A stretch of 64,000 bases of DNA, from assembly GCA_023078555.1 (NCBI GenBank), contig CM041199.1, forward strand, positions 3,468,513 through 3,532,512. Direction: 5' to 3'. The DNA is from Ulva prolifera. Its lineage: Eukaryota; Chlorophyta; Ulvophyceae; Ulvales; Ulvaceae. Made by a program: the position numbers and the translations under genes. Below are positions 6,139-62,424 of this stretch, one piece after another (the first letter of the stretch is position 1; every line of letters begins with the position of its first letter). The notes under the pieces were generated by a model. That model did not search any database. It was not told the origin of the DNA and saw nothing but the letters and a program-made list of their open reading frames with translations.

Positions 6139-6170
<32 letters not shown>

Positions 6171-22100: not shown

Positions 22101-23031
22101 GACCGACACGACCGTGCTCGGCCTCGCGCTGGGGCGGCTGCTGCAGACGATGGAGGAGCTGATCGACCGCGCGGCGCACCTCGGCCCCGGCGGCGAGGGC
22201 CTGCCGCGCGTGTGGCTGTGGTCCGGCCACGACACCACCATCATCCCCGTGCTGCTCATGCTGGGCCAGGATGTGAGCAGGTGGCCGCCGTACAGCAGCA
22301 GCGTGGTGCGCTCCGCCGCCGCCGAGTAGATGTGTGGGGGGGGGGGGGGTAGTTTTGGGTGCGGGGTGGGGCGATCGATCTCGCCGCATGAATGCATGCA
22401 TGCATGGCGTGGCTCTGTCCAGGTGCATGATGCGACCACCGTGTTCCTGTCAAGCAGGCAGGGCAGGTGGTATGGTGGTGAGGGCGTTACTTGCCTTATG
22501 AGTTAAAAGGTATAGCCGGCTTTATGCTGCCGACGCCGCGCGAGTCGTGCGAGCGTGCGATCGCGGTGCACCCTGTGCACACATCAGTGAGAAATGGTAC
22601 AGCAGCCCGAGCCAGAGTTCCCACACGTCCCCCATGCATGCACGCAGGCGTGCCGTGTGCATCCTGCACCCATGCACCGGAAGCATGCCCGCGCATGTGT
22701 ACATGCGACACACATTCTATGGGACCGCGGCGCCTCCTGGAGTACAGGCGGCGATGTGCAGGTGCTGGAGCTGTGGGAGGACACGGGCGCGGCGGCGCGG
22801 GCGCGGCCCGTTGACGACCGGCACTACGTGCGCGTCCTCTTCAACGGCCGGGAGGTCGCGGTGCCGCCCGAGACGACGGACCCAAGCGAGCCTCTGACGC
22901 TCGCACAGTTCAAGCACCACGTGCTGCGGCCCTACGCCCTGACGGAGGAGGAGCATGCGGAGCGGTGCATGATGACGTTTGAGCATGAGACGCGGGGTGG
23001 CACACCCGTCGACACCTCAGCCATCATGTGA
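19107..23031 (+). CDS. Histidine acid phosphatase, ACP6 / lysophosphatidic acid phosphatase type
   Basis: Histidine-phosphatase superfamily enzyme that removes phosphate through a phospho-His intermediate; the closest family I recognise is ACP6, which hydrolyses lysophosphatidic acid. Exons: 19107-19292, 19499-19765, 20159-20359, a tentative exon from 20738, 21247-21432, 22066-22305, 22762-23031. Exon 1 begins MRGLFTASYWLGLPACTAGA, a probable signal peptide. Exon 2 carries the catalytic VLFRHGARTPL (RHGxRxP) and GELTKVGQRQ. Exon 3 has LRHRYV and a HSTNYRRTRGT motif. Exon 6 has the second catalytic motif SGHDTTIIPVL and RWPPYSSSV; exon 7 continues VLELWED, YVRVLFNG and a Leu-rich end. Phases agree for all exons except the tentative one, whose donor I could not fix. 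Without it the protein is 449 aa. Exons 5-7 are much more GC-rich than 1-3. A TGTAA lies at 23534, about 500 bases after the stop. Confidence 0.9.
20636..20676. repeat. AT-rich palindromic ATATGATRTCATATGAT block in phosphatase intron
   Basis: Overlapping CATATGATATC / GATATCATATG words form a self-complementary stretch of about 40 bases within the intron after exon 3. Confidence 0.7.
22336..22349. repeat. 14-base G-run in phosphatase intron
   Basis: It starts 30 bases after the exon 6 donor (GTGCGC at 22306). Here the G-run is on the sense strand. Confidence 0.85.
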
Positions 23032-38500: not shown

Positions 38501-39504
38501 TGTACCAGTACCGCCGGTACAAGTACCACAGCGTGCGGGACCTGCTCCGCGTCATCCGCAACAAGGCGAACCACTACCGGGAGCTGCCGGCGTCGCTGCA
38601 GGCGCTCGTCGGGGAGCCGCCGGACGCGTACCAAGCGTTCTTCGCGGCGCGCTTCCCCAGGCTGCTGCTCACGATGCTGTTCTTCGTCAGCGACCGCGGC
38701 TGCCTCGGCGAGGCGGCGTTTACAAAGTACGGGATGACGGAGGAGGGCTGTGCGCGGTTCGCGGCGGCGCACGCGGACGCCGCGGTCGCGCCGCCGCCGC
38801 CGGCCGCCGCCGCGGGCGGGTCGGGCTCGCCCGCAACGCCCGACCGGAGCGCGCGGTCCGGGTCGGAGGGCGGCCCGTCGGGAGCCGCGGCGCCGCAGGC
38901 CCGCGCTCAGTCGTCACCGACGCCGCCGCCCCCGCACCCGCCCCCGCCACCACCCCCACACTACGCCCCCGGCATGATCGAGATGATGCCGATGACGCCG
39001 CTGTACGGGTCCGTCGGGCCGGTGCACGCGCCGCGGCCGCCGCCGCCGGCCGCGCCGCCGCCGCCGCACCTGATGCAGGTCGGGTGGAAGGACAGCGGCA
39101 ACCCTGCATGCCAGGCGCAGTCGTTCCCGCAGAACCCCGGAGCGCACCTCTGCGAATTCTACGTCCGCACCGGCAGCTGCAAGTACGGCGACGCGTGTTT
39201 CAAGGACCACCCGCCGCAGTATCAAGTGCCTCTCAACCTCGCAGGGTACCCTCTGCGGCCGGGGAAGGAGGCGCCGTGTTCGTACTACCTGCAGTATGGG
39301 GTCTGTGAGTTCGGCCCCGCGTGCAAGTTCCACCACCCGAACCTCGAGCCGGTGTACGCCGCGCAGGCGGCGGCGCCGCGGCTGACGCCGCAGCCGCCGG
39401 CGCACCCGCCGCCGCCGATGCTGACAATGGACGCCGCCGCGAGTGACTTCCGCATGGGCGGCGGGGATGTGCAGCCCGAGGATGCGGCCGCGGCAGTGAG
39501 GTAA
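32599..39504 (+). CDS. IRE1: IRE1 ER-stress sensor kinase/RNase with two C-terminal CCCH zinc fingers (8 exons, 1227 aa)
   Basis: Senses unfolded proteins in the ER lumen and, through its cytosolic RNase, splices a bZIP mRNA and cuts others. Exons, all in phase: 32599-32720, 33005-33242, 34012-34375, 34584-35183, 35719-35928, 36400-36854, 37108-37574, 38277-39504. Signal/anchor start [20 protein letters not shown]; luminal blades [12 protein letters not shown] and [14 protein letters not shown]; Ala/Gly-rich insert; membrane helix near residues 484-502 ([20 protein letters not shown]). The kinase has the [11 protein letters not shown] loop, [24 protein letters not shown] and [11 protein letters not shown], all typical of IRE1. 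The KEN RNase has [28 protein letters not shown] and the conserved NHYRELP, with the catalytic R-N and His in place. After a Pro-rich linker come two C-x8-C-x5-C-x3-H fingers near residues 1110 and 1150 ([40 protein letters not shown]). Confidence 0.95.
38079..38153. repeat. Inverted repeat in IRE1 intron 7
   Basis: GGGAGTGCCACACACGCAC at 38079 is the reverse complement of GTGCGTGTGTGGCACTCCC ending at 38153. Arms of about 26-28 bases with two mismatches surround a loop of about 20 bases. A related GCGCTCTGCGTGT word recurs just outside. Confidence 0.8.
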
Positions 39505-44740: not shown

Positions 44741-47700
44741 TCATTCCACAACTGTAACCAGGCGGGACTTCCCCCGGCCTCGGCCGATCAAACATCGTGA
44801 CGCGGCGGCGCCTGCTCGCCCACGACGAACTTGGCGCATCTCCTCCAGATCTGCGGGGCTGCGCTGCAGCACATCGTGTCCCTTCATGTCCCGCCCGTCG
44901 CGCCCACGCAGCATGGCGCGGAAGTGGGCCCCTGCCCTGCCGCCGCTCCCCCTGCATACACCCTCGGGCCACCCGGGGCCTGAGCGACTGCGCTGAGGTC
45001 GCTGCGGTGCTGACGTCGCTGCGCGGAAGTCAGCAATCCCAGCAACGAATGCGTGGACATGCGGACGCCTCGGGGGCCAGAAGCTCGATCCAAACATGGG
45101 CAGAAGCTCAAGCATCTACCCTTGTGCCGGCCCCCACCAAAGCGGAGGCCTGGCGGCCGTGGTACGGAGCATGGGGGGAGTCTGCGCACCACATCCCAGC
45201 GCCGGCAGGCATGCCGCCCATGCATGCAATCCCAGCAAAGTCGTGGCTGTGGGTGTGGCCGCCGGGGCCGGGCTGTGATGGGCTATGCTGCGGCGCACAT
45301 GCCCTCATCAGGACACGCTGCAGCTCCCTGCACAGCATGCGAAGTGGTCAGGCGCGGTAAACACGCGCATGCATGGGCTGACATGACGACCAGGGCTCGA
45401 CATCCCGATCAGTTTCTGGAAAAATAAATGGGAAAGGGCAAAAAAACCCGACGGCGAGCGAAGCGAGCCTTCGGTTTTCCCGACAAGCCAGGGGGGTGCC
45501 GTCTGGCGTGCCCGACGGCCGCCAATGGTGCTTTTCGGGTCCCCGGGTTCCCGAAATCCGAACCTGAGGGAAGCCCCGACGGAGGGAACCCCTGATGGAA
45601 CCTGAGGGGGTTGTCGGGAACCCCGACAACCAGCAGGCTGCATATCTTTTCCTGACAGGAAGAACCTGGCCTGTAGAGCCCTGATGAAGACCCCCACGGG
45701 ATGCATGGAACTGCATGCATGTGACGCTGCAAGCAATCACGTTGAGCACATGCGCAGTTGCTTGGGGCTCACATGCATGGGTCCCGGCCCCTGTCGGCTC
45801 CCGCAGCGGCACACAGTGTTCTACCAGACCGATTTGTGTGACCTGCAGCCTCGCGTTTGGCCACCGGTGGAACAGGGGGAACTTGGGGCACCGTGTTCAA
45901 GTGCATAACGCAGAAACCCAACCGAAGAAGGGGGGGGGGGGGGGGGGGGGGGGTTGATGATCAAAGGGAGGAAATTCGCACTCGGGCGAGACGCTGCTCT
46001 CGGTGACCGTCTGTCTCTTCTCCATCCGCAGCATGCCGTTCAGCCCCTCCGCGAGGGCCTCCTGGTATGGAGATGGCTCAAACCGCGGCAGCCGCAGAGT
46101 CTCCGCGACCACAGCACACGCAGCACGCAGCGGCGTCTCCTGCGCCACGCCGTTCCCGCCGCACCCGCCCACAAGCGCATGCCCCGTCGTGCCCACGAGC
46201 ACCTGTGGCCACTCCGGCGCGGCGTTGAGGCTGCGCCGTGCACATGTGAGGGCAGCTGCGGCGACGAGGGACGGCGGCTGGCGGTGCAGCGCGGGCGCGG
46301 CGGCTAGGGTTTCCAGGTGCGCATCGCGGAAGCGCTCGAGCGCGGCACGCGTCACGCTGGGCATGCTGTCGGTGAGGGAGATGTAGAGGTCAAAGTACTG
46401 CCACATGGACGGCGGCACCGCGAGGTCGGCGGATGCGGCGCCGCCTCTCGGCGCCAGCTGCACATGCATGCGGTGCCGTCTGTCTCTGACATGTACTGTA
46501 ATGCTGGACAACAATGCCTGTGAGCACTTGTAGCACCTTCAGCACCGCGGTGCACCGCACGTTGTATATGCATGCATGCATACAATTGGGGGGGAGGGGG
46601 GGCGAAGACAGTTCAAGCAGTTGGTGTCGAACACGTGAAGGGCCACAGGAGTGACTCCATTGGGGAGCACATGCTCAGCGGGAGGTGAGGGGAAGCAGGG
46701 GCAATTAGTTGTACGTGTGTGTTGCAGGGACGAAGGCCAGCAGGTAGGCATACCTGGTAGCTATCGCACACCGGGAAGGGCATATATATATACAGCAGGT
46801 ATGTATATACAGCAGGAGCACGAGAACACGGGCACAGCAGGCAGCTGGTCTGCCACAGGGGTTGCGAACAGGGGTTGCGCACCTCCGCGGGGAGGCGCAG
46901 ATCATACAGCAGCTGATGTGCCGCGGCCGCCGCGTGCGCAATGCACAGGCTCGTGATCGCCTGCGCCCTCCACGAGTCGGCCATCCACCCGCCGCCGCCA
47001 GCAGCGCCGCAACCGCTCGCGCGTGCGGCGTCGCTGCTGCGCCGTCTGACAGAGTCGGTGGCGTGCCACATGGGCACGGCGTCAGAGGGGGGCGGGCCGT
47101 CGCTGGAGGGGGCTGTGTTCCTGAGTGTGCGCGTGCTGCTGGCGGTGCTGGCGGTGGTTGCAGCGGCGCTGCCGGATGCGGAGTCCGCGGAGCGCCCCCC
47201 CCAGCCACTGCTGGCCGCCCCCGGCCTGCCCGCCACCCCTGCACCCCCAGCACGTGTGCAATGAGAGTTCCAGAACACACAATTGCCTGGATGGCCGGGT
47301 TTGACGAAGGTAAGTTTCTCCTGCCGTGCATGCGTTGGGGCGTTGGCATGCATGTGTACATGTTGGCATGCATGTGCGTTGCCTTGGTTATGCTACCAGC
47401 CACCCCGACTTTGTCCTTGAAACACAATTGCCTGGATGACAAATGTGGGTGCCATGCCCAAGAGATGCAGGAGCCACACACCACACACGTGGGAATGGCA
47501 GTACAACTCTTCAGGCGGAGGTAGGGCGCGCACCAGAGCTGCAGCACGGATTTGTTTTTTAAAAAACAAATCCGTGCTGTATTGAAATTTTAATATGTAT
47601 AATAAATATATCATGACGTTGATAATAAAGTTTGTCGCGTGATCCGAACAGGCACAGCGCAGCATGCATGGCGTGAGAGCGGCAGAGGCAGTACCTGCGT

Positions 47701-50700
47701 GCCCGTGGAAGCTTCTGGAACCATCTAAACGTGCCATGGCCACGTGTGACTCCAGCACCAGGCTCGCACCGCTGTAGCAGCCATGCAGGCTGCCACTGTG
47801 ACTGCATGCATCGGCGCTGTGCTCCGTGCTGTGTGCTGGCACACCGACCCCCCGTAAACCGGTCTGTGGCCAAAAGCCCTGTGGCCCGCAGCGCGAGACT
47901 GGCGGCCGGCCGCCGTACCCCAGCGCCTCCCGAAGCTGAACTGCACGCAGGCTCTCCACGAGCTCTGAGATCTGCAGATCGTGCTGCGCATGCTGCGCTG
48001 CCGCGGCCGGTAGAAAAGAGAGGCGGGAGGAGGGAGGAGACGGCGGGTCGAGCTCATCTGCCGGAAGGAGGAGAGTCAGCAGCTGCAGTGCGCGCACGAC
48101 GACGGGGGCCGGGAGGCCGAGCGCGTTGGCGGCGCCGGCGATGGCGGAGGCCGCCGCTGGCCACTCTGCAGCTGCCGGCGGCGCCGCGCGCTTCCAGTCG
48201 CCGTCCCGCGCAAGCGCAGCATGAAGGAGGCCCTCCGCGGCAGCCCACCGCTCCAGGAACCCTGACACCGCGCGCGGCGTACGCTGGGATTCGAGGGATT
48301 CAGGTAGCGGCACGCCCAGCACATGCGCTCCGGACGCACGCCACCGGGACAGCTCCGCGCGGCTGCATGACACGAGCAGCGTGGACCCCTGCACCTGTAG
48401 CCACAACGGCCACCCGTGCTGATCGATTGCCGCCTCAACGGTCGCGACTATCACAGCCGCCATATGCCCCTGCTGACTCACATCTAGCCCAAGCTGGAGA
48501 ATCTGTGCGGCGTGCGGGGGGGCGGCCGGGACACCCCCACGCTGCGCGGACCCTGGCCGTGACGGGGGGTGGGTTTGAGATCCGCAGGTCGGGATGCATG
48601 GGTACGCATATGCATTGCCGGCGCACATCGCGATGTCAGGCCCGAACGCACACCGGGGCGCGCCTGAGGCGCGGGCGTGACCAGGGTGGCGGGCGTGACC
48701 AGGGTGAGCTGTCGGGAACTCTAAGTCTTGCGCGGACAGCAGGGGAGGCGACATTCTTGATCCCACGTGAGGCTGTCGGCCGGCGTACGGAGGCAACGGC
48801 ATTGAGAGGTGCAGACCGTTAACATTCTGTTCCCGCGTGCTGAGGTGGTGGCCTGGCGGCTTCCGTGAGGAGTGGTGGCCATGCACGCGTGTGAGGGCCG
48901 CATGCGTGCGCGCAGACGCGCCCCCTGCAGCGGTCGTGGGCGCCCACACGGCCGCCACAGACAGGGTGTGGGCGGTGAAGTCGTAGGAGGTGAGAAGACA
49001 GTGTAGCCACAGCGCAATGCATGCAACGGCGGGGCCGGGCTGCTGTGAGGACACGCTCCAGGTCGACACAACCTCCGGGGGGCCTGCTCCGGACAGGGGG
49101 GCCTGCGCGGGACCCACGGGGGCCCCGGCCGCAAGGGCCCCTCCGGATCCAGAGGGGGTTGCGGCGGAGACCTTCCGGATGGTGTGCTCCACCCGAGACA
49201 TGTTGACTCGGGCTCCTGGCAGCGCTAGGGCAGCACAGCGGCTCTCGGCCGATCCTGCAGGGTGCTGTGGCAATCAGGTTCTCGCAAGGGGCCGTACAGC
49301 GCCGCATGCACCATGTTCCATGCTGTGTGTCAATGCAGTGTCGTGGCCATACCACTGGATTGCACATTCTGCAATTGCCCAAGATCATCATGATGTGAAA
49401 TTGTGGGCTGGAAACGGCAGCCTCAAACGGCACACGCAAGCAAACCACCCGACTTTGCCGGCGCGGCGAGGTGCGGGCTGTGCACAGTTGTTGGAGCCTG
49501 CTCCCACCGTGAACTCCCGCCGAGAGGTCGCACCCGCGCTCCACAGGGCTTCACAGAGCTTGCCTTGCAGGATGGGGTCCTTGCTGACGGCGCGGGGCAG
49601 CCGCTGCTGCAGCGCCAGCAGCACCCCCGGCCAGCAGCCGGCTGCATGCATGGCGGCGATCCAGGCGCGCACGCTCACGATGTCAGGGCGGAGGCCGCAG
49701 TCGAGCATGAAGCTCCAAAGGTGGACGGAGAGGCGCCAGGCGCGGGCGCGCGCGCACGCGCGCAGCAGCGTGTTGAACGTCACCACGCTCGGCTCGCACC
49801 CTGCTGCCTGCACCTCGCGGATTGCTGTGGAAGTGGCCATCCATCCGCCATGTACAAGTGATGTTCTGGCAGTGATGCGCGGCGCCCCTCATGACAGCAC
49901 TCATGATCACTCCGTGCCGTATACCTGCGTGTTGTAAGCCTCCTTGGCTGTGACCCACATGCATATGTGAATTCTAGCATTTGGAGTTTTCACTGTCCAG
50001 GAACCATGCGGCTCAACCCCACTTGTGACGGGATTTGCGCATTCTCCATGACAGCTGAAATCTAGAAGGCCGTGGCAGAACTATTGATCGCACTATAGTA
50101 TACCACCAGCTGGCCAAGTATGCCAGCATTTTGATTCATATCAATCTGTATAGGGGATGAACCGAGTAGAACCGCGTTTGCTGGACTGCCCGTGCACATG
50201 GGCACAGCCACCACGCAGCAGCCACCACGCTGCCGACTGCATGGAGTACTCCATGCAGTCGTGCACGTGCACTCAAAGGACATCGCTCATGATCAGTGCA
50301 CGGGCGCGACACATCATGGCATTGCAAAGTGATGTAACCGCATGGGCACCAGCACTGATGGTCGACAAGCGTTGTACAACACGTGCACCATGGTCACGGG
50401 ATGGAGACGGGGGCTGTTCGTGTGTAAAGCAGCTTTAACTTGAATGTACAGCACATTGATCTGCACTCATCTGGTTGCCTCGTTGTTGCTGTCCAGCGAT
50501 GTGGCAGATACACCACTGGACTCCTATACCACTGGACCCCTATAGTTCTATGGCGCCACCGCAATACCGTACTTAATTAAAAGCATGGACATGCGACGCG
50601 TAACGCTGGGTTTTCTAGGTACTTGGCTAGGTATAGTTGATAATGATTATTTGGCCCACCGAATATTACAAGTTTTAGACCTAGACCCCATGTAACGCTA

Positions 50701-53700
50701 ACCTAGATGTCCCTGCTTTCAATTTATAAATTGAAAGCAGGGACATCCCTGTGGCCGTACTACCCTACTACAGTAGGGTAGTACGGACACAGAGGACATA
50801 GAGTACATGGGGCGTCATGCGCCACCGCCCTAGTGAGGCAGCATGGCTGGCAATGTGTGACTGTTGCAAGGACAAATTCAGAGATGCAGGTAGCATAGCA
50901 TCATGATGTCTCTGGGGTTCCTGTACTACATGGACAAAGCCGGAGTGGCTTGTAGCACCGCCAGGTCAACGGACAAGCACGCCAGCTCTGGGGGTGCCCA
51001 ATGCACGCACGCCTCTGGGGGTCCTGTGTGTTACAAGGACAAAGCAAGCAAGGCAGGTAGCACCGCGAGCAGCAACCAGGGGATCCGCACACCACGCAGC
51101 AAGCCACACGCAGCACACACCAACACACCCACGCACCAGCAGCACCCGCGCCGGCCACAGCCACACAGCCACACAGCCACAAACACTCACAAGCATCACA
51201 CCCAAGACCCACAAGCACATGTACACCGACACCGGGGGTCCTGTGTGTGGGGGTCCCTGCCATTCGAACCGTGGTGCTAACTAGTGTGAGAAGTTGCTGT
51301 ATGGTCCAGTGATGGCCGGTGTGGTATCAATTGCCACTGTGATATCTAGACTGGTCACTCCCACGCTGTCAATCGTATTCACCCCGTTGTCATGACAGAT
51401 GTGATATCAATTACCACTGTGATATCTTGACTGGTCACTCCCACACAGGTCCTCCTGTCATCGCAGCTAGGACATGGCGTCAGCATGCATGAGCGCCCAC
51501 CACATGAGAGCGTAATCCCTGACCCCTAATGCCAGTGTTCAGCAAGCCTTGCCAGCAGCTGCAGCCAGAAGTGGGGTATGCTTGTTGTTTGCCAGTCAAA
51601 CCTGTGTTGGGTCATACGCGTGAGATCTGTGCCTCTGATACAGTACCTGTGGCAATCCAGTGATATCGATATCGCTGCAATGCCACAGCACCCATCTTCA
51701 GGTAGGCCACATGTGTGGACACAGGCAGGTCACAGGCGGGTCACTCATGACAGTTGCTGTTTGGAGGAGTGCTTCAGCATGCTGCTCTGCAGCTGGCTGA
51801 TGACATCTTGCAAGGTCAATTGAGCACAGGTGGCTCCCAGGTATTGAAGGGACACAGGCCGGTAAGGTGTGCTAGGTGTGCTGCAAGGTAGCGCCAGTAG
51901 CCATATGGGGAGGAAGGTAGCACCAGTCAGGGCACATCATTTGGAAAAGGCAGGGCCCATCATTTGCCAGCGTGGACGTCACAGCCTAGCATGGATTCAG
52001 GGAGAGTTTGAGCTTTTCATGCTTTTTCAGGTCCATCCCTGGAACATAAGCTGACAGATGTGCTATCTAAATCAGTGTCCCTCTCCATGCAATCTAGATC
52101 AGGGCCAGGTGGGAAGGGTCTAGCCACCAAGTTTGGTGCAGTTTGTGGTGGCTAGCTGACCCAGGTCGAACGTGCTGCAAGACCTTTAAAGACCCCTCAG
52201 AGCTGATGAGGACATGGACATTCAAGCCAGAATGTCATATACAGATAAAAGGTGACAGAGACAACACTGCTGAAATAGATCACGGTGTTCCGGGGTGATG
52301 CCTGGGTGTTACCTGCTAGAGCAGTGGTGCACCATGGTAGCTGCAAACTTCAGACCACTGCAGGACCGCACGTACTAGTTTGGTGCCTGTTCGGTGTTTC
52401 GGAGAACGAATGCACAAGTGTTGATGATAAAATGCACTCAGATGAGTGCACTTATCCGACTGCATGGATAAGTGTATGTGACTACAGGCTGTCAAGCCTG
52501 TGCTATATTGGGCTGTGCCACACAGAAAACTTGTGCATGTGTTTTGGGAGTACATAGTCTGAGCTTGAACTCGTCACTGTCATCAGAGTGACGGACACAC
52601 CTGACCAACACCTACAGCCTGATTGTCCTCTCCGTCCACGCAATTGTGTTCAGTGGTCAGATTGGGAGGTCAAGCACCGAATCCACATGATTGCATAACC
52701 CATAGCCACGCACCACACAAAAGGGATGGCACCAACCCGCACTCTGCAAACAATCGTGTGTGCACATGCAGTCTATCTCATTTCAAGTGTAGTCAGCGTC
52801 AGGGCTGTGCTCCAGCACATATCAGATCATTTGTGGCTGTGCATGGTGGTGCAGATGATAGTGTTGTGCTTTGTGGCTGCAGACAACATGTGCACAGGAC
52901 AGAACCTCAGATTTGATCACACACACATTGCTTCGACGGGTATTTCGTTGTTGTTAATGCTCGAGTGTATGCTTGTCTCCCTTCCATGGTCGTTTGCAGC
53001 TAACCTCATGGTGGATCCAGACGCCTACACAAGCACTGCCACAAGGCGATGTGGTGCAGACAACCAAGATTGCTCGACTACAGGATGATCAGCTGCCCAG
53101 ATTGTCTACTTCATCTGAATTGTGAGGCTGTGGATCTGCAACGTTGGGCACTGGCATGATGTTGCCAACTGGCCAGGACAGACGCATACCCTCTCTTGTC
53201 CCGGAACAGCTCACCTACTGACCAGCCAAGCATTACATTTCGGCACATGCTTCTGCACTTTCTGGCTATCTCGTCGTGGCTTTGCCAGGTACATGCCGGT
53301 GGGCTGCCTGTCTGATGTTGGTGGTTTTGGAGTCCGCTCGAACGCTACCACTCCACTTCAAGACGCTATTCGTGATCGTTACATGGTCTCGCAAGTTCAT
53401 CCGTGCTGGTGAGTAGTTGAGATGACAGAGCGAGCCGATCGAAGCCCAACACGCTCGAGAGCACCGGTGAGCCAGTAGGTGCACGAAAGTGTTCCTAGCT
53501 TAGAACAAACATTCAGAGCCGGATGTATTGTGCATTGCAAGCGTATCGCGGCTCGCTGCGACTCAGCGCATAGCAAGAACATACTCATGCACGTACAGAA
53601 CAGGGCAGCAGTTCGCTGCAGCTGCGCGCCATTGCCAACGGTGAAACGAATCAGCAGAGGTAAGAACGGCCACTTCTCGCTGGCATGCGTTGAGCGAGCG

Positions 53701-56700
53701 CCAGGCAGTGAGCTGTTGCTATCTGGGCTAGGAAGCGGGTGAATTGGACAGCTTGATGGTCATTGCGGTTGCGTATCAAGTGCCGCGGCGTCGAGCGGTC
53801 ACCGAGCCGGACATCTTCGGATGGCAGCACCAACAGGCAAGCCCGACGCAATCGATTGCAACTGATGAGCGCCGTGTCGCGGGCTGGAAGGCTGCTGCTT
53901 TTGATAGGCTTCGATATGCTCGTCAAGCGTTCAGGAGATGTGCCTGTCGCGCGCTTGATGGAAACATTGATTGCGAAAGCTTTGACACAGACGACCGCAC
54001 GAGTAGCTGCTGTCAAGTCTTTGTATCCATCCTGTTGATCGGTGGCGGCGGCCGGCAAAGGTGTCTATGATGAAAAGCCAATCTCCTGGGCCCCGGGCGG
54101 CTAGGCTTGGAACACTAACGAATTGGCACAGGAGCACTGTTTCGGTGGCAGACCGTGCCCATGCGCAGCGTCAAGTGCTGAGATATTGATCACAGGCACG
54201 AATAATGTGTTCGAGCGGTGTCTTATGAGAGTTGTACCGCTGGTGGATTGGTCAAAGGCCAAGCATGAAGAGCTGCAGGCTTCAGGTATATGCCTGACAA
54301 GTAATATATAACTTGTAGCGATATCCCGGAGAGCTGCTGCGCGGATCACCGGGATGGCCCCGGTGGACGCTTGCAGCTCATGGGGCAATCCGGGTGGCCG
54401 GCTGCGCCGGCCGCCGGGACTTGCAAAAAAATCTGCCCAAAATTCCGGGATTCCGATCGGGATGCACAACCCCGACTGTCGTGTGTAGGCCGTGGGGTCT
54501 GTGCGTGCGCGTGTGGGTCTGGGTTTGTGGGTTTGTGGGTGTGCGTGGCGGTCTGCGGATCTGTGTCATTTGCTGCGCCGGTGATGGGTTTTTTTTGGGC
54601 GTGGTGGGTGTCGCGTGCGTGGGTGTCTGGCTGTTTGCTTCTTTCGCGGTGCTGCTCGTCTTGCTGCCTTTGTCCTTGTAACACAGCCCCGACTCGTGAG
54701 GTATACACCGCGATGCGTGATCCCGTGACCTCGGACGAACAAGCACAATCTTCTCGGACCACTTGGCGCCAAACAGCAGTAACGCACATGCAGTGCAAAA
54801 GGCTGCCGAACACCTCTGTGCGATGAAGCCTACGCAGGTCGATAAACTCCCTACCGATCCTGGTAACCTGTGGCACGCTGGCTAAGACTGCCCACACCGG
54901 CCTAGCAACGTTCGTCAGACCGTTTGGAAACGAGTTTCTGATTGCGTCCGGGCACGGCGCGCCGCGGCGGTCATCTTTATCCGGTCCTAAAGCCTCGACC
55001 TGTCGCATGTGAAAACGATCGAAAAGGCACCAGGGCATGACGTCTGCTGACACCGCTAGTTGCCACGCAAGCACCGGTTGCAGCGCGCACTGCGTGCAAC
55101 TAGCTGTGCAACTGTCATAGACGGGCGTACAGGGATCTTTGAGCGATGGTTGACCTCAGAGGAAGGTAAGAATAACTGAATAGTATCTAAGCCACATGGT
55201 GAGGGTCGTAACGAGCGAAACGTCACAATCCAGAGTGTTTGCACCGCGCACTGGCTCTGATGTCGCCCACGACTCCAGCTCTGATCAGACTGACCGTTGC
55301 TACTTCGCAGCTGCACAGTCTAATGTCATACAATATTAAACTGGCTGTGAACGCAGGCCTGGTTGAATTTCCGCGCTTACGCGTAAGCGCTGCAGCGTCT
55401 GGCGAGCTCGGCAACATTGTAAACTCATTAACAGCCTCACAACCAGCCCAGACGTCGCTCAGGCACAGCAAAACAACAAGGCAATGTGGCTCAATTCAAA
55501 GGATGTCAACTCGCACTATGCGTGGCCGTATGTGCCCTGGCATGGGGACATGACGGAATGGACTGCACTAGCAACGACTTGCACTCACCCATACATCATG
55601 CACGCTCAATATGAAAATAGCCTTTAAAATTTATGCTTGATCATTAGAGTAGGGCTTGACGCACAGTCGGGGTCGCGATGGGCAGCCGCGCGGCAGGTCA
55701 GCAGTGCGGTACTTGCATCGCAAAGTCTAAAGAGCCGCTGCTAACCCAGCTAATGCACGTCTACATGAAGAAATATTTGTTCCCCACAGTCGCAAATGTG
55801 TGCTGCCTCCGGCGTGCTGCCTCGCGGCCGTAACAGTAGAGCGGTCATGATGGCACTCTGTGCATTTACGCATCGTTAGCCCAGCTGTGTCACGAGACAG
55901 CTTTACTGATGATCCTCATTCTTTGATATCCATAAGCACTACTGGGGGCACATAGCGCGCTAGGCGGGTGGTGGTGGCACCAGCCTGGCTGTGCAGGCTC
56001 CATACATTGTGAATGGCGTGCCGCTGACGACATGTAAAGTGAAGCACGTGGGCATGCCATGAGACTTCTGGAGGCTATAGGACAGGTTGTGGAAAACCGG
56101 CACGTCGAGGAGCCCAACGGCATTCGATGATCCTAATGGACTACTAGGACTCGATGGATGCACATGGCCACCATGCATGGTCACCATGTGTTGCTGTGGA
56201 ATCGGATGAGATTCGGTTTTGGTGTTTGTCTTCTCCCGTTCACTCTTTTGTAACTTCATTGTCTTCGGAGATGAGGGCAGTGGATTGGGGCTCAGCTGTC
56301 GATGCGACCTTCCGCGGCTCCTGGTGCGTGGCTCGTGAACGACAATTCACATCCAGTGGCGCCAACGTGTATGAGCGTTATGACGTTCGCCCGCGGCCGC
56401 GCTCTAGATCACGCACAGGTTCCCGCATGAACACAGCACGCGTGCAGGAGAAAGCTGCGCATGCGCGCTCTGCTGAACGGTTCTATCAACTCGCCGTGGA
56501 TATCGGAGATCAGCTCCATTCTATTGCGATGGCACCGCGACATATGGCACCGCGACGGCGCCACTGCCGGCGCGGCGATACACGTTCGGGTCGCAAGGGC
56601 CTGCTGATCATCGACGGTTCACAAGGCATCGCGACCGTGAGTCCAGGTGAATATACATGCATGGGTCGGGATCGTGAGTCCGGGTGTATGGTTACAGCAT

Positions 56701-58574
56701 AGTGCGCATGCCCGCGGGCAAAGAGTCTATGCCATAGTCAAACACGGCAAAAGAATCTCTCCCGAGTCCACAGCCACACACACCAGGTATATACGTACAT
56801 GCATGGGTCACTGGATGAAAGGGAAGATGTAGCAGCGCCCCACGCGCGAGTGGCGGTCACCTGAGCACTTGTACTCTGACCACATGTAGTGTACACAGCC
56901 TCTACATGCTCAGACGCGTGTATTGCAAAAGCACTTCATCCAAGCGGTGCATATGGCTCAATTCGTACACGGAGTCTGGTCACTCATGTCCACTGTATGC
57001 CCCCGGAGGCCACGCTCCGGCCCGGCGCAGTTTTTTAACAGGCTCGGGTGTTGCTCATGCGTGAGCAGGGATATCGATGGCGGCGCACGTATCGTGAGCG
57101 TGTGATGTTCCGAGACCTACCGTCCTGTTAACAGGGGCAAGGCACTGCTAGCCACTGCCGTACATTAGCGGCACCCAGAATGACAGTCTCCGATCGCACG
57201 GCGACGACGGCGACGAACAAGGTCACCCGGTCGCAACACCGGGCCCCGGCTCTCGCGCAGATACATAACGCGCCGGCAAGCCGATGCCGCAGTTCAGACT
57301 ACACCTGCCGGTTGCTGTGAGACGCTCTCACCACCAATAGGCTGCATGCAGCTGCACGGCGGGAAATCAGAGCAACCCGCCGCCCGGGCGGTGGCCACGC
57401 GGCGCCGGGCGCGCGGCCGGGGAAGCGCCGCAGGCAGCCGCGCATGCATGAGGCCGGTGCACGCACCAGCATCTCGTCAAAGTAGTGCAGGGCCTCCTGC
57501 AGGTTGCCGGCCTTCTCGCAGCCGTTGATGAGGCTCGAGAAGACGATGGTGTTGGGCTGCAAGGCCGCGGCCTTCATGCCGTCGAGCACGCGTGCGGCCT
57601 CCGGCAGCGCCCCCGCGCGGCAGAACAGCGACAGCAGCGCCGTGTACGCGGCGAGGCCGGGCCGCAGGCCGGCGGCCATCATGCCGTCAAACACGCGCAC
57701 CGCCTCCACAGCACGCCCAGCACGGCCGCATGCCGACAGCGCGAGGTTGTAGCACCACTCTGCGCGCACGCCCTGCATGTTCGCACCGCGACTTTCCACC
57801 CTGATCATGACGGCATGCCTCGACCAGGCGGCGCCAGCGGTCCGCCGCATGCGTTGACGGTAGGGACCAGTTGTTTGACCTCATGCATGCATATATCTAT
57901 ATGTTAAAGAGGTCGGACGTGAAGAAATGCGCTTCTGGTTCTATGGGGCCGCGTCGCATGTGTAGCTCCCTGAAAAGTGATGCGGCAGAATATGCACTTG
58001 CAAGGAGAGGGGGGGGGGATTCGAGACCGCCATGGGTTGGGGCCCCCACTGGTCGCGCTCCTGCCCGCATGGGGGGGTGCGCGCCTTGTCAACAATCATG
58101 TTAAGCGTCTCGAGTGCTCCCTCCCACTGCCGCAGCTGCCCGTACGCGTCCATCAGCGTGCGCAGCGTCGCGACGTCCGGCTCGAGGCCGTCGGCACGCA
58201 GGTCGCCGTACAGCTGCAGCGCGGCCGCGCACCGGTCCGCGCGCACACACACGGCCAGCGCGGAGGCGTACATCGGCACGCTGCGCGACACGCCACGCGC
58301 GCGCGCCTCCTCCAGCAGCTGCTGCACTGCCGTGACGCCGCGGGGGCTGCTCGGAGCCTGCAGCGCGTGTTACCATACTCATGCGGACCTCGTGCCAGGT
58401 TGATCCGCACAACAGACCCCTCCAGATTGTCATGGAGCTTCATGTGGACTGCGTGATCGGGGAAATTCAGCGTCTGCGGGGCTTTGTTGGTGTTCACGTG
58501 CTGGGAGGGGGGGGGGTTGATTATGAGCTCGAGCGATTTCATGGCAGATCTAGAGCACTTCAGCAGTCTGCTTG

Positions 58575-58607
<33 letters not shown>

Positions 58608-58905
58608 TGCCAGGGCGATCACGCTAGCAAACGTGGTCGTGTCGCACAGCGCAGCGAGTGGGTCAGACGGCGGCAGCGTGCGCAGCACGCGGAAGACGTC
58701 GAGAGCGCGCTGCGTCGCGCCGCGGCCGTTCAGCACGGCAAACGCGGCGGCGAGCACATGCGACGGGCACGCGGCCAGAAGCAGCCGCAGCCGCCCGGCT
58801 ACGATCTTGCCCTTCTGAAGCGCCTGCAGCAGGGTGGCGGTGTGCGCGGCCGCTCCCATTACCTCGCTCCGCTGCTGTTGGGGCATCGCCTCCTCGGTGA
58901 GCTGC
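44741..58905 (-). CDS. PPR-SMR-cyclin protein (probable organelle RNA/DNA-binding factor)
   Basis: Pentatricopeptide repeat protein with an SMR-like and a cyclin fold, as in the chlorophyte PPR-cyclins. Exons: 58905-58611, 58357-58085, 57772-57467 (PPRs, e.g. CYNLALSACGRAGRAVEAVR), probable 23-nt 49947-49925, 49824-49534 (CEPSVVTFNTLLRACARARA), 49224 to about 48.85 kb, 48472-47919, about 47253-46881, 46457-46008, and a tentative last exon about 44935-44741. The SMR-like part is split: AVACIALWLHCLL and ALTRVHGHHSS, then PLWLQVQGSTLLVSCSRAEL and SRW. The cyclin N-box is ANALGLPAPVVVRALQLLTL; the C-box is PPSLVAAAALTCARRSLNAA before WPQVLVGTTGHAL. The true start lies upstream of 58905 and was not found. 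At least one exon is missing between 57467 and 49947, and the junction 47919/47253 does not fit in phase. Two introns seem to have GC donors. Confidence 0.8.
45425..45650. repeat. GC-rich island like organelle spacer DNA, in PPR-cyclin intron
   Basis: Self-similar words crowd this stretch: GGCGAGCGAAGCGAGCC, CCCGACGG, AACCTGAGGG and CCCCGACAACC, many with inverted partners. Such GCGAGCGAAGCGAGC palindromes are typical of spacer DNA in green algal chloroplast or mitochondrial genomes, so it may be transferred organelle DNA. No coding sequence is seen in it. Confidence 0.5.
45930..45953. repeat. 24-base G-run in PPR-cyclin intron
   Basis: It lies 55 bases past the proposed end of the cyclin C-box exon (a C-run on the sense strand). 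Confidence 0.85.
47542..47579. repeat. 38-bp perfect palindrome
   Basis: Arm CAGCACGGATTTGTTTTTT meets its exact reverse complement with no loop, within a PPR-cyclin intron. The flanks are AT-rich, unlike the surrounding exons. Confidence 0.95.
50706..50747. repeat. 42-bp perfect palindrome
   Basis: Arm GATGTCCCTGCTTTCAATTT followed by TA and the exact reverse complement. It sits 7 bases from a second palindrome. Confidence 0.95.
50755..50786. repeat. 32-bp palindrome, 15-bp arms
   Basis: CCGTACTACCCTACT and its reverse complement around a 2-base centre, next to the palindrome at 50706-50747. GGACA words follow both. Confidence 0.95.
51026..51234 (-). mobile_element. Short non-autonomous element, 209 bp, 8-bp target duplication
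   Basis: Starts GTGTGTTACAAGGACAAAG, then an AC-rich body with CACAGCCACACAGCCACACA. GGGGTCCT lies at both ends (51018-51025 and 51235-51242; the identity extends to 15 bases). A second copy of the same length lies at 54478-54686. The 8-bp duplication suggests a hAT-like DNA transposon derivative; the terminal inverted repeats are poor, so a different class cannot be excluded. It has no coding capacity. Strand is assigned arbitrarily. Confidence 0.65.
51322..51451. repeat. Direct repeat of a 44-base unit
   Basis: Copies at about 51322-51365 and 51407-51450, each reading TATCAATTRCCACTGTGATA and on to GACTGGTCACTCCCAC, with few mismatches. Confidence 0.8.
53240..56702 (+). CDS. Possible nested plus-strand gene (coding islands only)
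   Basis: Unrecognised. Several plus-strand stretches look protein-like and some end at good donors: to 53408 (MPVGCLSDVGGFGVRSNATT, donor GTGAGT); about 53480-53659 (donor GTAAGA); about 53858-54030 (GDVPVARLMETLIAKALTQT); 54132-54285 (SAEILITGTNNVFERCLMRV and VDWSKAKHEELQAS, donor GTATAT); about 55260-55480 (SYNIKLAVNAGLVEFPRLRV); 55679-55831 (QQCGTCIAKSKEPLLTQLMH); about 56290-56700 (AERFYQLAVDIGDQLHSIA). They do not show one known domain, and the minus strand is also open in places, so the strand and the joining of the pieces are uncertain. If real, the gene lies inside an intron of the PPR-cyclin gene. Confidence 0.22.
54478..54686 (+). mobile_element. Short non-autonomous element, 209 bp, target duplication CCCCGACT
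   Basis: In the opposite orientation to the copy at 51026: it ends CTTTGTCCTTGTAACACAG. CCCCGACT flanks it exactly (54470-54477 and 54687-54694). The body is GT-rich on this strand. Same length as the 51 kb copy but strongly diverged inside. No coding capacity. Confidence 0.7.
56193..56254 (+). repeat. Dispersed repeat, ATTCGGTTTTGGTGTTTGT ... TTTTGTAA
   Basis: Same sequence as at 63228-63277 and, shortened, at 62748-62777. The reverse complement occurs at about 63500-63575. A shared core is CTCCCGTTCACTCTTTTGTA. No target duplications could be defined. Confidence 0.75.
58578..58605. repeat. 28-base G-run beside a PPR exon donor
   Basis: On the sense strand exon 58905-58611 ends in CTG, followed by GCATG and a C-run. 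The run begins at intron position 6. Confidence 0.9.
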
Positions 58906-59892
58906 CTGCATGCATGGGTGCCATGCGTTGAAGGCGGGGGCAGTTCTTGCGAGGCCCGGCCTACCTCTGGCATGGGGCACTGAGGGGGAAGGGAGCCCTC
59001 CCTACTAGGGAAGGGAGCCCCCCCTACTAGTAGGGCCCCGGAGGAAGGGCGCCACCTAAGAGAGATGCACGGCATGAGTTCAGGTCCATGTGAGGACCTG
59101 TTGGGGGGCTGTGTGGAGGTGCATCAAGGCTGGCCGTGTGGATGCGACCGCAAGAATGGATATGTGTCTGGCTGGTGTGTTTGATGGTGACGTACAGGTT
59201 TGACGGTGTCAGCCTCCATTGGACTTTGATCCAAGAGCTTGGCCGGGGGCCGGGAATTCTGTCGGTTTAGCCTGAGGATGTCGAACTGCGGACCTGTGTT
59301 GCAACGTTGCTCTGTGTCTTTTGTATGAGGGCACAGGCGGAGATGTGGAGGGACTCCCGGATGTGGAGGGATGTGGAGGCAGGCACCCTGACTAATTATT
59401 ATTTTATAAAACGCATCGCAATTGACTTGGGACCACCACCAACCCAGCCTGCGTCTGTTTTGCATCAACAGAGTGAGCTATAGCGAGGCAGGTGCCACAT
59501 GGGTGTTTCCTTGCAGCTGTGCTTGTGTTGGAGAGGCAAGGTCAGGATTGCGTGCCGGCCATGCGTAGCAACACTGAGCAACAGACAACCGACCATGTCG
59601 ATGGTGCACATGGTGCACATGGTGCTGTACACAACTGCATGCATTATCACATTATCATCCTGCTAGAGGCAGCTGATTTGATTCAATGGTAATATCGGAA
59701 ACGCATAGACATCCGCCTTTCTAGACGTACCGGATGCTGGTGATGTTGTGCCTTTCTTTGTTGATGCTTTGTGGCAATCCAGTGATATGGCCGCTGTACC
59801 ACTGGATTGCCACATGCTTTCTGTGCCTGGCTGTTCAGTGTAAACCAGAGAGTGCAGCAGTGCTTCAAGAAACCTGGCACACTGATGCAATG
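58906..59892. other. Upstream of known PPR exons; no gene supported
   Basis: The 5' part of the PPR-cyclin gene should lie here or further right, but no frame shows PPR features. There is a short duplicated GGGAGCC[CT]CCCTACTAG motif near 58995-59030 and a hairpin word at 59775-59815. Confidence 0.35.
59774..59818. repeat. Hairpin word, TGTGGCAATCCAGTG arms
   Basis: TGTGGCAATCCAGTG and CACTGGATTGCCACA enclose ATATGGCCGCTGTAC. This is the most perfect member of a small family also seen near 43.5, 49.35, 50.5 and 51.65 kb. Confidence 0.8.
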
Positions 59893-60157
59893 TGATACAA
59901 GGACAAAGCAAGCAAGGCAGGTAGCACCGCGAGCAGCAACCAGGGGAACCGTACACCACGCAACAAGCCACACGAAGCAAGCCGCGGGTGTGCAGCAGCA
60001 CACCCGCGCCGGCCACAGCCACACAGCCACACAGCCACACACCCACACACCCACAAGCGCTTTTGGTGTGCGCTTCGTGTGGCTTGCTACGTGGTGTGCG
60101 GTTCCCCTGGTTCTTGCTTGCGGTGCTACCTGCCTCGCTGCCTTTGTCCTTGTAACA
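59893..60157. mobile_element. Foldback element with inverted arms of about 85 bp
   Basis: The left arm, from ACAAGGACAAAGCAAGC, is repeated inverted in the right arm, ending CTGCCTTTGTCCTTGT. The arms share GGCAGGTAGCACCGC and AACCAGGGGAACCG with a few mismatches. The centre is CACACAGCCACACAGCC-rich and contains a second palindrome (CGGGTGTGCAGCAGCACACCCG). The arm is the same family as the elements at 51.0 and 54.6 kb. CTGATGCAATGTG occurs on both sides (59880 and 60221). No coding capacity. Confidence 0.75.
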
Positions 60158-61068
60158 CACACCCACACACCCACAAGCATCACACCCAGCATCACCCCCC
60201 TGCACATTGCATCAGGACCCTGATGCAATGTGGCATCACATGCTGGTCCTGCTCCTGGACTTCGGAGTTGTCAATGTTCCTGTGGATAAGGCTATGTGAT
60301 GTATGTAGTCATGCATGAATGATACAGCTGCGTGTTTGCACCAGAGTGACAGTTATGTGCTCAGCAGCATCCAAGACACCTTCTGACCGGCTCCGGATGC
60401 AGCAGTAAGCCACAGGCTGTCATTGCCTGGATAGCTTGTGTGAACGCACAGGATGGTAGGAGTTGCTAGCTGTGGCACTCGCCGTGACTGCATGTCAGAT
60501 CAAGCTCCAATCACGCTCTGAACAAAGCCTAGCAGAGCACTGCAGAGGCGGCAGCTGGCCAGAGCACACCAAAGCAGGCACCACAGCCTTGGAAAACACC
60601 CAACAGACCTACTGCGTGAGGCGTGTCTGTGTCTGCAGCTTCTGCCTGATCGTCATCACGTCCGAATGGCCTGAGAAATGAAGGGAACTAAAAAGCAGTT
60701 AGAGTGGCGCATCAGCGGACGGAGTCGGAGTCGCCCGTGCGGTTTAGGCACAGTTTAGGCACAGGCACGGGACCAGGGCAGAGACATTGCAACAGCATTG
60801 TGTGAGATGCAAGGACCTAGAGCACACGATCGCAAACGTAAGCGCAGGGGCGAAGGGAGGCAGAGACGAAGGGAGGCAGAGAGGCTGAGGGGCAGAGCGA
60901 GTGTGGTGTCCCCAGCGCACCCCAGATGGTGATATGCCCCACATGCCGCCCCGCATGTGCACGGTGGTGCAGCAGCTGTTGGATGCAGCAGCTGTCAACG
61001 CCAGGCTGGCCATGCACAAGTCACATGAATTCATTTGAAGCAGCACCCATGTGGTGATGTGACGGAAA

Positions 61069-61091
61069 GGGGGGGGGGGGGGGGGGGGGGG
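61069..61091. repeat. 23-base G-run
   Basis: Intergenic; no exon adjoins it that I can recognise. Confidence 0.85.
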
Positions 61092-62424
61092 CACGGGTAT
61101 GCCTGGCCTGGCATCTCTGACTCCTGCGGCGGCGCAGAGGCCGTTCTTGGGAGAGTCGAATTGAAACCCTGGCCTCACTCCATAACAACCCCAATTACAT
61201 CGTCACAAACCCAATTACATTGCCACGGTAACACATCACCACCAAGGTACATCAACACTGGCCTCAAACACAATGGCAGTCCAATCCACATCAGCAACCC
61301 CGGCGTTTATATGTCATATGTGGCAACATTGGAATTCTCCCAAACTATAAATATAGTCATGCATGATAATGCAGATACATGGTCATGAGGCCACAGGGGT
61401 CACCATGTGGCAGTCTAACATGTGGCAGTCTAACACGCTGGTTTTGCTGCTCATTGGGTGCCATCCAACTGTCAAACTGTCACTGCACCGTTGCAGTGGA
61501 ACTGTGGTGCTGACAGTCTGTTGGCATCACCGTGAATTCGGGGTTTCACACATCACTGTGCACCATCACTACATATTGCATCATGGTGGTTCTGTGCATG
61601 TGGCTACAGAGGGCAATAGCTACCATGGGCTAGCCTGTGATATCATGAAAGACTGGCATACGCGTGCACCAGCTGGGGTTTGATAGCCACACGCTATCCG
61701 TGTGGCCTGCGCATGCGGTGCTACCGTAGGTGTCCTGCCTCTTTGGCTATTTTCTTGTAATACAACGCAATCAGCCACAGACTGTGAACGTTCCAGGTAG
61801 CTGGGTCCCTAGGCTGGGGTGCAGACGGCTTGCAGGCTCATGTACTTACATGACAAAGCTGTGCAGGTGTCTTGACGTAGTGTGGCAATTCGATGCAGTG
61901 GTGAGGCCGAAGGTCAGGCTGGAACGTTACATATCACTGGAGCTTAGCACGTTGAAAATTCAGTGAGGATTCGAGGCATAGCATCGGAGTGGTCATAGTG
62001 TTTGAGCTCGCCGCTGCATGCATGCGCAGTGTGTTGAGAAGCTCTTGGGGGACATTGGTTTGTGAAGCATGCATGCAGACGTCCAGGGGAGCATATGCCA
62101 GGCCGACAAACTGTGCAGCAGCTGTGTGCCAGACCAAACCACAGCAAGTAGTGCCCTTCAGGAGCGCCCTTCACTCCTGAAAAGGGGTGTAACAACAGCA
62201 CGGTGGAGGGCACCGCGTATGCCGCTGAGGCGGAGTTGTCAATGTCGTTGCCAGGACGCGGCTCGGTAGATTCAGGTTGACTTTGAAAGCAGGGTCCGCG
62301 CAGGATCATGCACACAGACTGCAGAGACCACAGACTGTATACGTGTATACATACACGCGTGTATACATACACGGACACCACTGTATAATACACTGGCAGA
62401 GGTGGCGGGCGTGCGCACAGCACA

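What the first reader, a model, noticed from the sequence alone, without database searches (positions are those of the whole stretch)
44741..58905. PPR-SMR-cyclin protein
PPR repeats, a split SMR-like segment and both cyclin boxes lie in order on one strand. PPR-cyclins with SMR domains have been described only in green algae, and no role of the cyclin part is known. Here the usual SMR DLHG start is not visible (WSVS stands in its place), so the nuclease function may be lost. A cyclin on an organelle RNA-binding protein hints at a link between cell cycle and organelle gene expression.
Basis: partly seen in the sequence, partly recalled or inferred. Interest (0 to 1): 0.75.

Follow-up and report, generated by a model that had tools for sequence, protein, structure and literature searches.

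The report
Algal PPR protein with cyclin-like end
This is most likely a green-algal RNA-binding (PPR) protein ending in a cyclin-like fold, a further member of a small known algal family whose cyclin part has no known job, so it is a modest addition rather than a new kind of protein.

Summary
A minus-strand gene at about 58.9-46.0 kb of a eukaryotic (green-alga-like) window encodes a clear PPR array: Pfam PPR_2 E 1.5e-38 when four exons are spliced by hand. The PPR exons at 57 and 50 kb belong together: the strongest splice sites near them join across 7.66 kb in exact PPR register, with no coding signal between. The last large exon, 46457-46020, is cyclin-like: Cyclin_C E 7e-4, just under Pfam's cut-off, absent from 10 controls, with weak fold matches headed by cyclins; a PDB sequence search found none. 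The first cyclin box has no profile or fold support. The SMR segment has no profile support in four assemblies and four pieces. PPR-cyclin proteins are already annotated in Chlamydomonas (PPR4, PPR6; PMC9368121), and PPR4 is a photosynthesis candidate from acetate-requiring mutants (PMC8448359). Best reading: an organelle RNA-binding factor whose cyclin fold is a protein-docking module rather than a cell-cycle switch. New member of a known kind.

The parts
58611..58859 (-). PPR exon 1 (5' end uncertain; an acceptor at 58905 or an ATG at 58859); ends at a GC donor in my model
   Evidence: codon score 58 with the gene's own table, 26.5 with the independent table; gene finder; the GC donor CTG|GCATGC scores only -1.3 bits (GT alternative at 58623: -1.6) and was chosen because only it keeps the repeat 35 residues long
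58085..58357 (-). PPR exon 2; acceptor CTGCAG|, GC donor AAG|GCGCGC
   Evidence: PPR_2 8.9e-06 on the open frame around it; splice scores 8.7 and 5.0; codon score 51.2, independent table; gene finder
57467..57772 (-). PPR exon 3; start set by repeat register (acceptor 1.1 bits; the gene finder preferred 57703, or 57800 without GC donors)
   Evidence: PPR 9.9e-20; codon score 65, independent table; donor 7.9 bits
49808..57466 (-). intron of 7659 bases with dispersed repeats, no coding signal above chance
49534..49807 (-). PPR exon 4; acceptor GTGCAG|, donor |GTGCGACC
   Evidence: PPR_2 1.1e-06 on the open frame around it; codon score 35.7; splice scores 9.3 and 7.4
48950..49254 (-). possible exon: end of the helical region and first half of an SMR-like segment (..EVVSTWSVSSQQPGPAVACIALWLHCLL..)
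   Evidence: best of three frames but negative independent codon score (-40.7); splice scores 3.7 and 4.6; skipped by the gene finder; no Pfam match except the PPR joined to it
47921..48439 (-). probable exon: SMR-like second half (VEAAIDQHGWPLWLQVQGSTLLVSC) and helices placed where cyclin box 1 would be
   Evidence: codon score 84.7 for 48397-47903 with the gene's own table, -5.7 with the independent table; the gene finder keeps only 48165-48098 of it, in some settings also 47971-47919; no Pfam match; low-confidence model, no cyclin match
46883..47238 (-). possible exon: Ser/Ala/Gly-rich linker and one helix (WRAQAITSLCIAHAAAAAHQLLYDLRLPAE); the helix part from 46960 is the better supported
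   Evidence: acceptor 12.4 and donor 7.6 bits; 46960-46883 in all 4 runs; codon score -2.5, best minus frame, against 28.0 for the plus-strand frame over it
46020..46457 (-). exon with cyclin box 2 (..PPSLVAAAALTCARRSLNAAPEWPQVLVGTTGHAL..); may run to 45982
   Evidence: Cyclin_C E 7e-4; 0 of 10 controls match; codon score 43.3; weak cyclin/TFIIB fold matches

Best explanation
A nuclear gene of a green alga encodes a P-type PPR protein whose array of about eight repeats (my count by eye) binds an organelle transcript, most likely in the chloroplast, and helps its stability, processing or translation. The degenerate SMR-like stretch after the array, if it is one, is a structural remnant without clear nuclease motifs. 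The C-terminal cyclin fold acts as a docking surface for a partner protein, as cyclin folds do in TFIIB-like factors, rather than as an activator of a cell-cycle kinase. Shown here: PPR array, one gene across the long intron (by splice sites and repeat register, no cDNA), a cyclin-like last exon. Inferred: single transcript to the cyclin end, organelle location, RNA target, docking role.
For: PPR array. Exon joining by splice consensus and repeat register. Cyclin_C match with clean controls. In the Foldseek list for the cyclin exon, 26 of 42 matches are by entry title cyclin or CDK-cyclin structures (21, counting P-TEFb and a CDK8-module entry) or TFIIB/Brf2 (5); 4 more are pre-initiation complexes. 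Chlamydomonas Cre12.g511400, a cyclin-related PPR protein, is among 253 higher-confidence photosynthesis candidates from acetate-requiring mutants (PMC8448359). The four characterised Chlamydomonas PPR proteins act on chloroplast RNAs (PMC8635915, passages).
Against: No transit peptide could be read; the 5' end is not fixed. Cre12.g511400 is marked O for subcellular localisation in PMC8448359 Table 2 (the footnote was not seen, I take O to mean neither organelle), and the passages seen report validation only for LPA3 and PSBP4. No homologue could be aligned. Cyclin_C is below Pfam's cut-off, the best fold match has E 0.76, a PDB sequence search with the joined cyclin region found no cyclin (one match, E 1.3), and box 1 was not found. 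The gene finder gives a split before the cyclin exon an edge of 2.2 and 6.0 bits in 2 of 3 settings.
Confidence: 0.5

Rival explanations
1. A true cell-cycle coupler: the cyclin part binds a CDK-like kinase, so that organelle RNA handling is tied to the division cycle.
For: Cyclin_C match; CDK-cyclin entries are 21 of 42 in a weak fold list, the first three included.
Against: Box 1, which carries most kinase contacts in classical cyclins (recalled), has no profile or fold support; the literature lead points to photosynthesis (PMC8448359); TFIIB-like proteins are in the same fold list (5 of 42).
Confidence: 0.1
2. Two neighbouring genes: a PPR gene ending near 47 kb and a separate small cyclin-like gene at 46.5-46.0 kb, joined by eye.
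For: The split at 46.7 kb scores 202.9 against 200.7 and 172.9 against 166.9 in two settings; the Cyclin_C exon has no box 1 on it; a plus-strand frame of 107 codons (46941-47264) outscores the minus exon just before it.
Against: The third setting favours joining, 248.7 against 242.1; donor 46883 (7.6 bits) and acceptor 46457 (8.5 bits) join in frame and are joined in all 4 runs; PPR-cyclin proteins are annotated elsewhere (PMC9368121); the scoring charges nothing for a second promoter.
Confidence: 0.2
3. A decaying gene: GC donors, unrecognisable SMR and box 1 show loss of constraint after the PPR part.
For: Two GC donors in the PPR part against 0 of 16 in the clathrin gene model of the same window; independent codon scores are negative from 49.25 to 46.9 kb.
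Against: The four PPR exons and the cyclin exon are open and score 26.5, 51.2, 65.0, 35.7 and 43.3 with the independent table; GC-AG introns are functional in many eukaryotes (recalled).
Confidence: 0.1

Closest known systems
PPR-cyclin proteins of Chlamydomonas (PPR4 Cre12.g511400, PPR6 Cre10.g437150; annotated in PMC9368121; family survey Tourasse et al. 2013 recalled, not held)
   Same: PPR array and a cyclin-like region in one protein, by annotation
   Different: No sequence of theirs could be compared here; domain order, an SMR segment and intron positions in them were not seen
PPR-SMR proteins of land plants (GUN1, SOT1, pTAC2, SVR7)
   Same: PPR array first; a stretch after it has an SMR-like pattern by eye
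   Different: No SMR profile match in four assemblies and four pieces; no TGxG in the frame read; a cyclin-like end is not part of those (recalled)
Cyclin / TFIIB fold proteins
   Same: One helical box with the PSLVAAAALTCARR core (Cyclin_C) and weak fold matches
   Different: First box not found; on a gene with PPR repeats

Membership tests
P-type PPR protein | Tandem 35-residue PPR repeats found by profile | tested here: met
   PPR_2 1.5e-38, 6 stretches; PPR 3.2e-31, 5 stretches
P-type PPR protein | Targeting to an organelle | not testable with these tools
   5' end not fixed, no targeting predictor on hand
PPR-cyclin family of green algae | Cyclin-like domain together with PPR repeats on one strand | tested here: met
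   Cyclin_C E 7e-4 on the exon downstream, 20 bits against cut-off 22: weak
PPR-cyclin family of green algae | Both parts in one transcript | tested here: inconclusive
   joined in all 4 runs on this gene, but a split at 46.7 kb scores better in 2 of 3 settings
PPR-cyclin family of green algae | Sequence homology to PPR4 or PPR6 | not testable with these tools
   no eukaryotic protein collection; viral and prokaryote scans with the cyclin exon found no relative
Cyclin | N-terminal cyclin box | tested here: not met
   no Cyclin_N match; 0 of 29 fold matches is a cyclin by title (model pLDDT only 52, exon model uncertain)
Cyclin | C-terminal cyclin box | tested here: inconclusive
   Cyclin_C below cut-off; 26 of 42 weak Foldseek matches are cyclin or TFIIB-like by title; no cyclin by PDB sequence search
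PPR-SMR | SMR domain by profile | tested here: not met
   no SMR match for the open frames, for four full assemblies (2, 2) or four pieces (1, 3), nor for one assembly in PDB sequences and NCBIfam; the exon model is uncertain
PPR-SMR | LDxH and TGxG nuclease motifs | tested here: inconclusive
   by eye STWS stands at the LDxH place; an in-frame IDQH at 48427 fits the pattern loosely elsewhere; TGxG occurs at 48398 and 48011 only in another frame, and SGSG and SGAG only upstream of STWS (motif table PMC6662315)

The most novel reading that the evidence does not exclude
A PPR protein in which a nuclease-dead SMR remnant and a one-box cyclin fold have become a regulatory dock, so that a cell-cycle kinase or a transcription-type partner controls an organelle mRNA directly.
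Probability: 0.08. Interest if true: 0.7.

Novelty: new member of a known kind. Interest (0 to 1): 0.35.

Why it matters
I found no tested function for the cyclin part of the PPR-cyclin family in the held library. A further member with an unrecognisable SMR part would suggest that the nuclease is not what keeps the family, and that the PPR array and the cyclin fold are. If the cyclin part is a docking site, the family would give a simple handle on how algal nuclei steer organelle gene expression.

Tried and rejected
The plus-strand frame at 46941-47264 (107 codons) scored higher than the minus strand with the gene's own codon table (58.0 against 23.4 at best) and with the independent one (28.0 against -2.5). 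It could be a small nested gene. It has only one weak Pfam match (E 0.06) and one weak PDB match (E 1.6), and the minus strand has a strong acceptor and donor around it, so I lean to an antisense shadow, without proof; it remains a point against the linker exon.

GC donors as a general habit of this genome: no sign of it. All 16 donors of the clathrin gene model are GT. But the donor model was trained on 14 clathrin donors that were all GT, 13 of them among those 16 by my count, so it scores GC low by construction; the test is largely circular.

The first Viterbi run allowed tiny exons; of its 3 finished settings 2 left exon 3 at 57406 and inserted micro-exons in the long intron, the third used 57467 and 49807 with an empty exon between. 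It then stopped with an error. I replaced it with a minimum exon length and a higher intron cost, that is, after seeing the result. SMR assemblies with different mini-exons were tried and none matched; the mini-exon splice sites score -6.4, -6.6 and -9.3 bits. Relatives were sought in viral contigs and genome contigs with the cyclin exon only: 24 and 593 pattern matches, no relative. PDB sequences: no cyclin for the joined cyclin region, no match at all for the SMR assembly; NCBIfam, a prokaryote library, none for either. A cyclin-like reading of the 48439-47921 exon was tried by fold and failed.

The comparison of one gene with two used 5 cut points and 3 intron costs: 15 comparisons, of which 13 favour joining and 2 favour a split, both at 46.7 kb.

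Full report
What the sequence is. No whole genome is held for the window. It holds a clathrin heavy chain gene (PDB clathrin, E 1.5e-96) whose exons follow a tight splice pattern, donor |GTGCGN and acceptor TGCAG|, so it is eukaryotic. I call it green-alga-like from its composition, splice pattern and the PPR-cyclin architecture; that is inference, and no call named the organism.

PPR part. The open frames around exons 2, 3 and 4 match PPR profiles, the one around exon 1 matches nothing. The hand-spliced tract of exons 58859-58611, 58357-58085, 57772-57467 and 49807-49534, with 17 residues of the next exon, gives PPR_2 1.5e-38 and PPR 3.2e-31. The joins were chosen so that repeats stay 35 residues long, so the gain of the spliced tract over single exons is partly by construction. 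Two joins need GC donors: 58085 (5.0 bits) and 58611 (-1.3 bits, no better than the GT alternative at 58623 with -1.6). With GT donors only, the gene finder changes the exon ends there but still joins 57467 to 49807 (third setting). The exon 3 start by register (57772, acceptor 1.1 bits) differs from the gene finder's choice (57703, 7.8 bits); cDNA would decide.

One gene across the long intron. With codon statistics from the clathrin, IRE1-like and phosphatase-like genes of the window (2262 codons, none from this gene) and splice models from clathrin (14 donors, 10 acceptors), all 4 settings on this gene join 57467 to 49807. The same program recovers 17 exons of the clathrin gene, a control that is partly circular because clathrin trained it. 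An earlier, cruder version did not make the join in 2 of 3 settings. Between 50.0 and 57.3 kb there is no coding signal above chance on either strand, but there are dispersed repeats. Against a cut at 53.5 kb, joining wins by 6.3 bits in each of 3 settings. The repeat register, which the program does not know, is separate support: exon 3 ends and exon 4 begins inside one repeat, and the join completes it; the best PPR_2 stretch covers the whole 50-position profile across that junction.

SMR part. The stretch EVVSTWSVSSQQPGPAVACIALWLHCLL and, further on, VEAAIDQHGWPLWLQVQGSTLLVSC follow the PPR array as an SMR domain would, but that is a reading by eye against a recalled pattern. Pfam gives no SMR match for the open frames, four assemblies and four pieces; one assembly has no match in PDB sequences or NCBIfam. 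The independent codon table gives both halves negative scores, though the frame is the best of three, and the splice sites of the mini-exon needed between them are poor. In SOT1 the LDxH motif serves DNA cleavage and TGxG RNA cleavage (PMC6662315 section 3.2, read). A pattern search of the three minus frames of 49300-48000 finds TGxG only at 48398 and 48011, in a frame other than the one read; SGSG and SGAG lie in the right frame but upstream of STWS; an IDQH at 48427 lies in the right frame and fits LDxH loosely. So loss of the nuclease is likely if this is an SMR domain, but not shown.

Cyclin part. The exon 46457-46020 matches Cyclin_C with E 7e-4, 20 bits against a cut-off of 22, with similar values in one longer assembly and three (E 4.5e-4 to 1.4e-3). 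None of 10 controls, 9 shuffles and 1 reversal, matches any Pfam family. A PDB sequence search with the joined cyclin region found no cyclin, only a phycobilisome linker at E 1.3. AlphaFold2 from the single sequence gives a helical bundle, mean pLDDT 65.4, pTM 0.61. Foldseek finds 42 PDB matches with E up to 10, the best at 0.76. By entry title 21 are cyclins or CDK-cyclin complexes (counting a P-TEFb and a CDK8-module entry), 5 TFIIB or Brf2, 4 pre-initiation complexes whose chain is not named, and 12 others, 8 of them serum albumin. The first match is a CDK4-cyclin D1 structure with probability 0.60 and TM 0.37. This is weak but consistent with one cyclin box. The exon 48439-47921, where the first box should be, gives a poor model (pLDDT 52.2) and no cyclin by title among 29 matches. 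The exon at 47238-46883 has strong splice sites but is low in complexity, and a plus-strand frame over it scores better.

Is the cyclin exon part of the gene? The donor at 46883 and the acceptor at 46457 join in frame, and all 4 runs do so. But when the program may end one gene and start another at 46.7 kb, the split scores 202.9 against 200.7 and 172.9 against 166.9 in two settings and loses 242.1 to 248.7 in the third. The fusion is favoured because such fusions are annotated in Chlamydomonas, not by the window alone.

Literature. In PMC9368121 (one passage) a table lists Chlamydomonas PPR4 (Cre12.g511400) and PPR6 (Cre10.g437150) as PPR-Cyclin protein, as counterparts of Arabidopsis SMR11 and SMR4. 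Those are SIAMESE-related cell-cycle inhibitors (recalled), so I take the pairing for a clash of the letters SMR; if so, it hints that the algal entries carry an SMR-domain label. In PMC8448359 (passages) Cre12.g511400, cyclin-related protein with PPR domain, is one of 253 higher-confidence photosynthesis candidate genes from acetate-requiring mutants, localisation O, with entries Zm and At for other mutant libraries (footnotes not seen). PMC8635915 (passages) lists 14 Chlamydomonas PPR proteins, 4 of them characterised, all in the chloroplast; PPR4 has 10 motifs and no known target, PPR6 a target, psbF, suggested by the PPR code only. Passage searches of PMC13126933, PMC9459714 and PMC10226603 found no cyclin. 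The family survey of 2013 is not held. Searches for PPR-cyclin, the two gene numbers, and cyclin with PPR and algae (one search listed 25 of 29 papers) showed no functional study of the cyclin part by title and opening of the abstract, in a library that lacks most subscription journals.

PPR code. Read by hand on the spliced tract, two of about eight repeats carry a standard pair at the code positions (T,N for A and N,D for U; code recalled). That is too few to name a target.

Verdict. A real PPR gene with a probable cyclin-like end, a doubtful SMR remnant and an unproven first cyclin box: a new member of a known algal kind. The cell-cycle idea is open but has no support here.

Noticed in passing
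window 34006-39498 +: IRE1-type gene: kinase (Pkinase 1.6e-18 on one piece), then an RNase domain (Ribonuc_2-5A 9.9e-36) and two CCCH zinc fingers (zf-CCCH 8.4e-14, 2 stretches) in one open segment 38296-39498. A paper search (9 papers, 8 listed) showed nothing on this fusion by title.
   Followed up: partly
window 4079-14689 -: Clathrin heavy chain gene, 17 exons found by the gene finder, all 16 donors GT and 13 of them GTGCG; its 5' part lies outside the stretch searched or was not found.
   Followed up: partly
window 58611 and 58085 -: Two introns of the PPR gene need GC donors to keep the repeat register, against 0 of 16 in the clathrin gene model, which was built with a GT-trained donor model.
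   Followed up: partly
window 46941-47264 +: An open frame of 107 codons from an ATG on the opposite strand inside the cyclin region, with a higher codon score than the minus strand under both codon tables; no convincing relatives.
   Followed up: partly
window 51025-51123, 54615-54690, 59891-59979, 60063-60161: Copies of a dispersed repeat of up to about 90-100 bases in both orientations, two of them inside the long intron.
   Followed up: no
window 45926-45968, 58574-58606, 61066-61097: Runs of 20 or more G (C on the minus strand), two of the three beside exons of this gene; a shorter C run follows a donor at 6171 in the clathrin gene.
   Followed up: no
window 22078-22992 +: Segment with HDTTIIPVLLMLG, like a histidine acid phosphatase by eye; Pfam gave no match with E up to 0.01 on two pieces.
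   Followed up: partly
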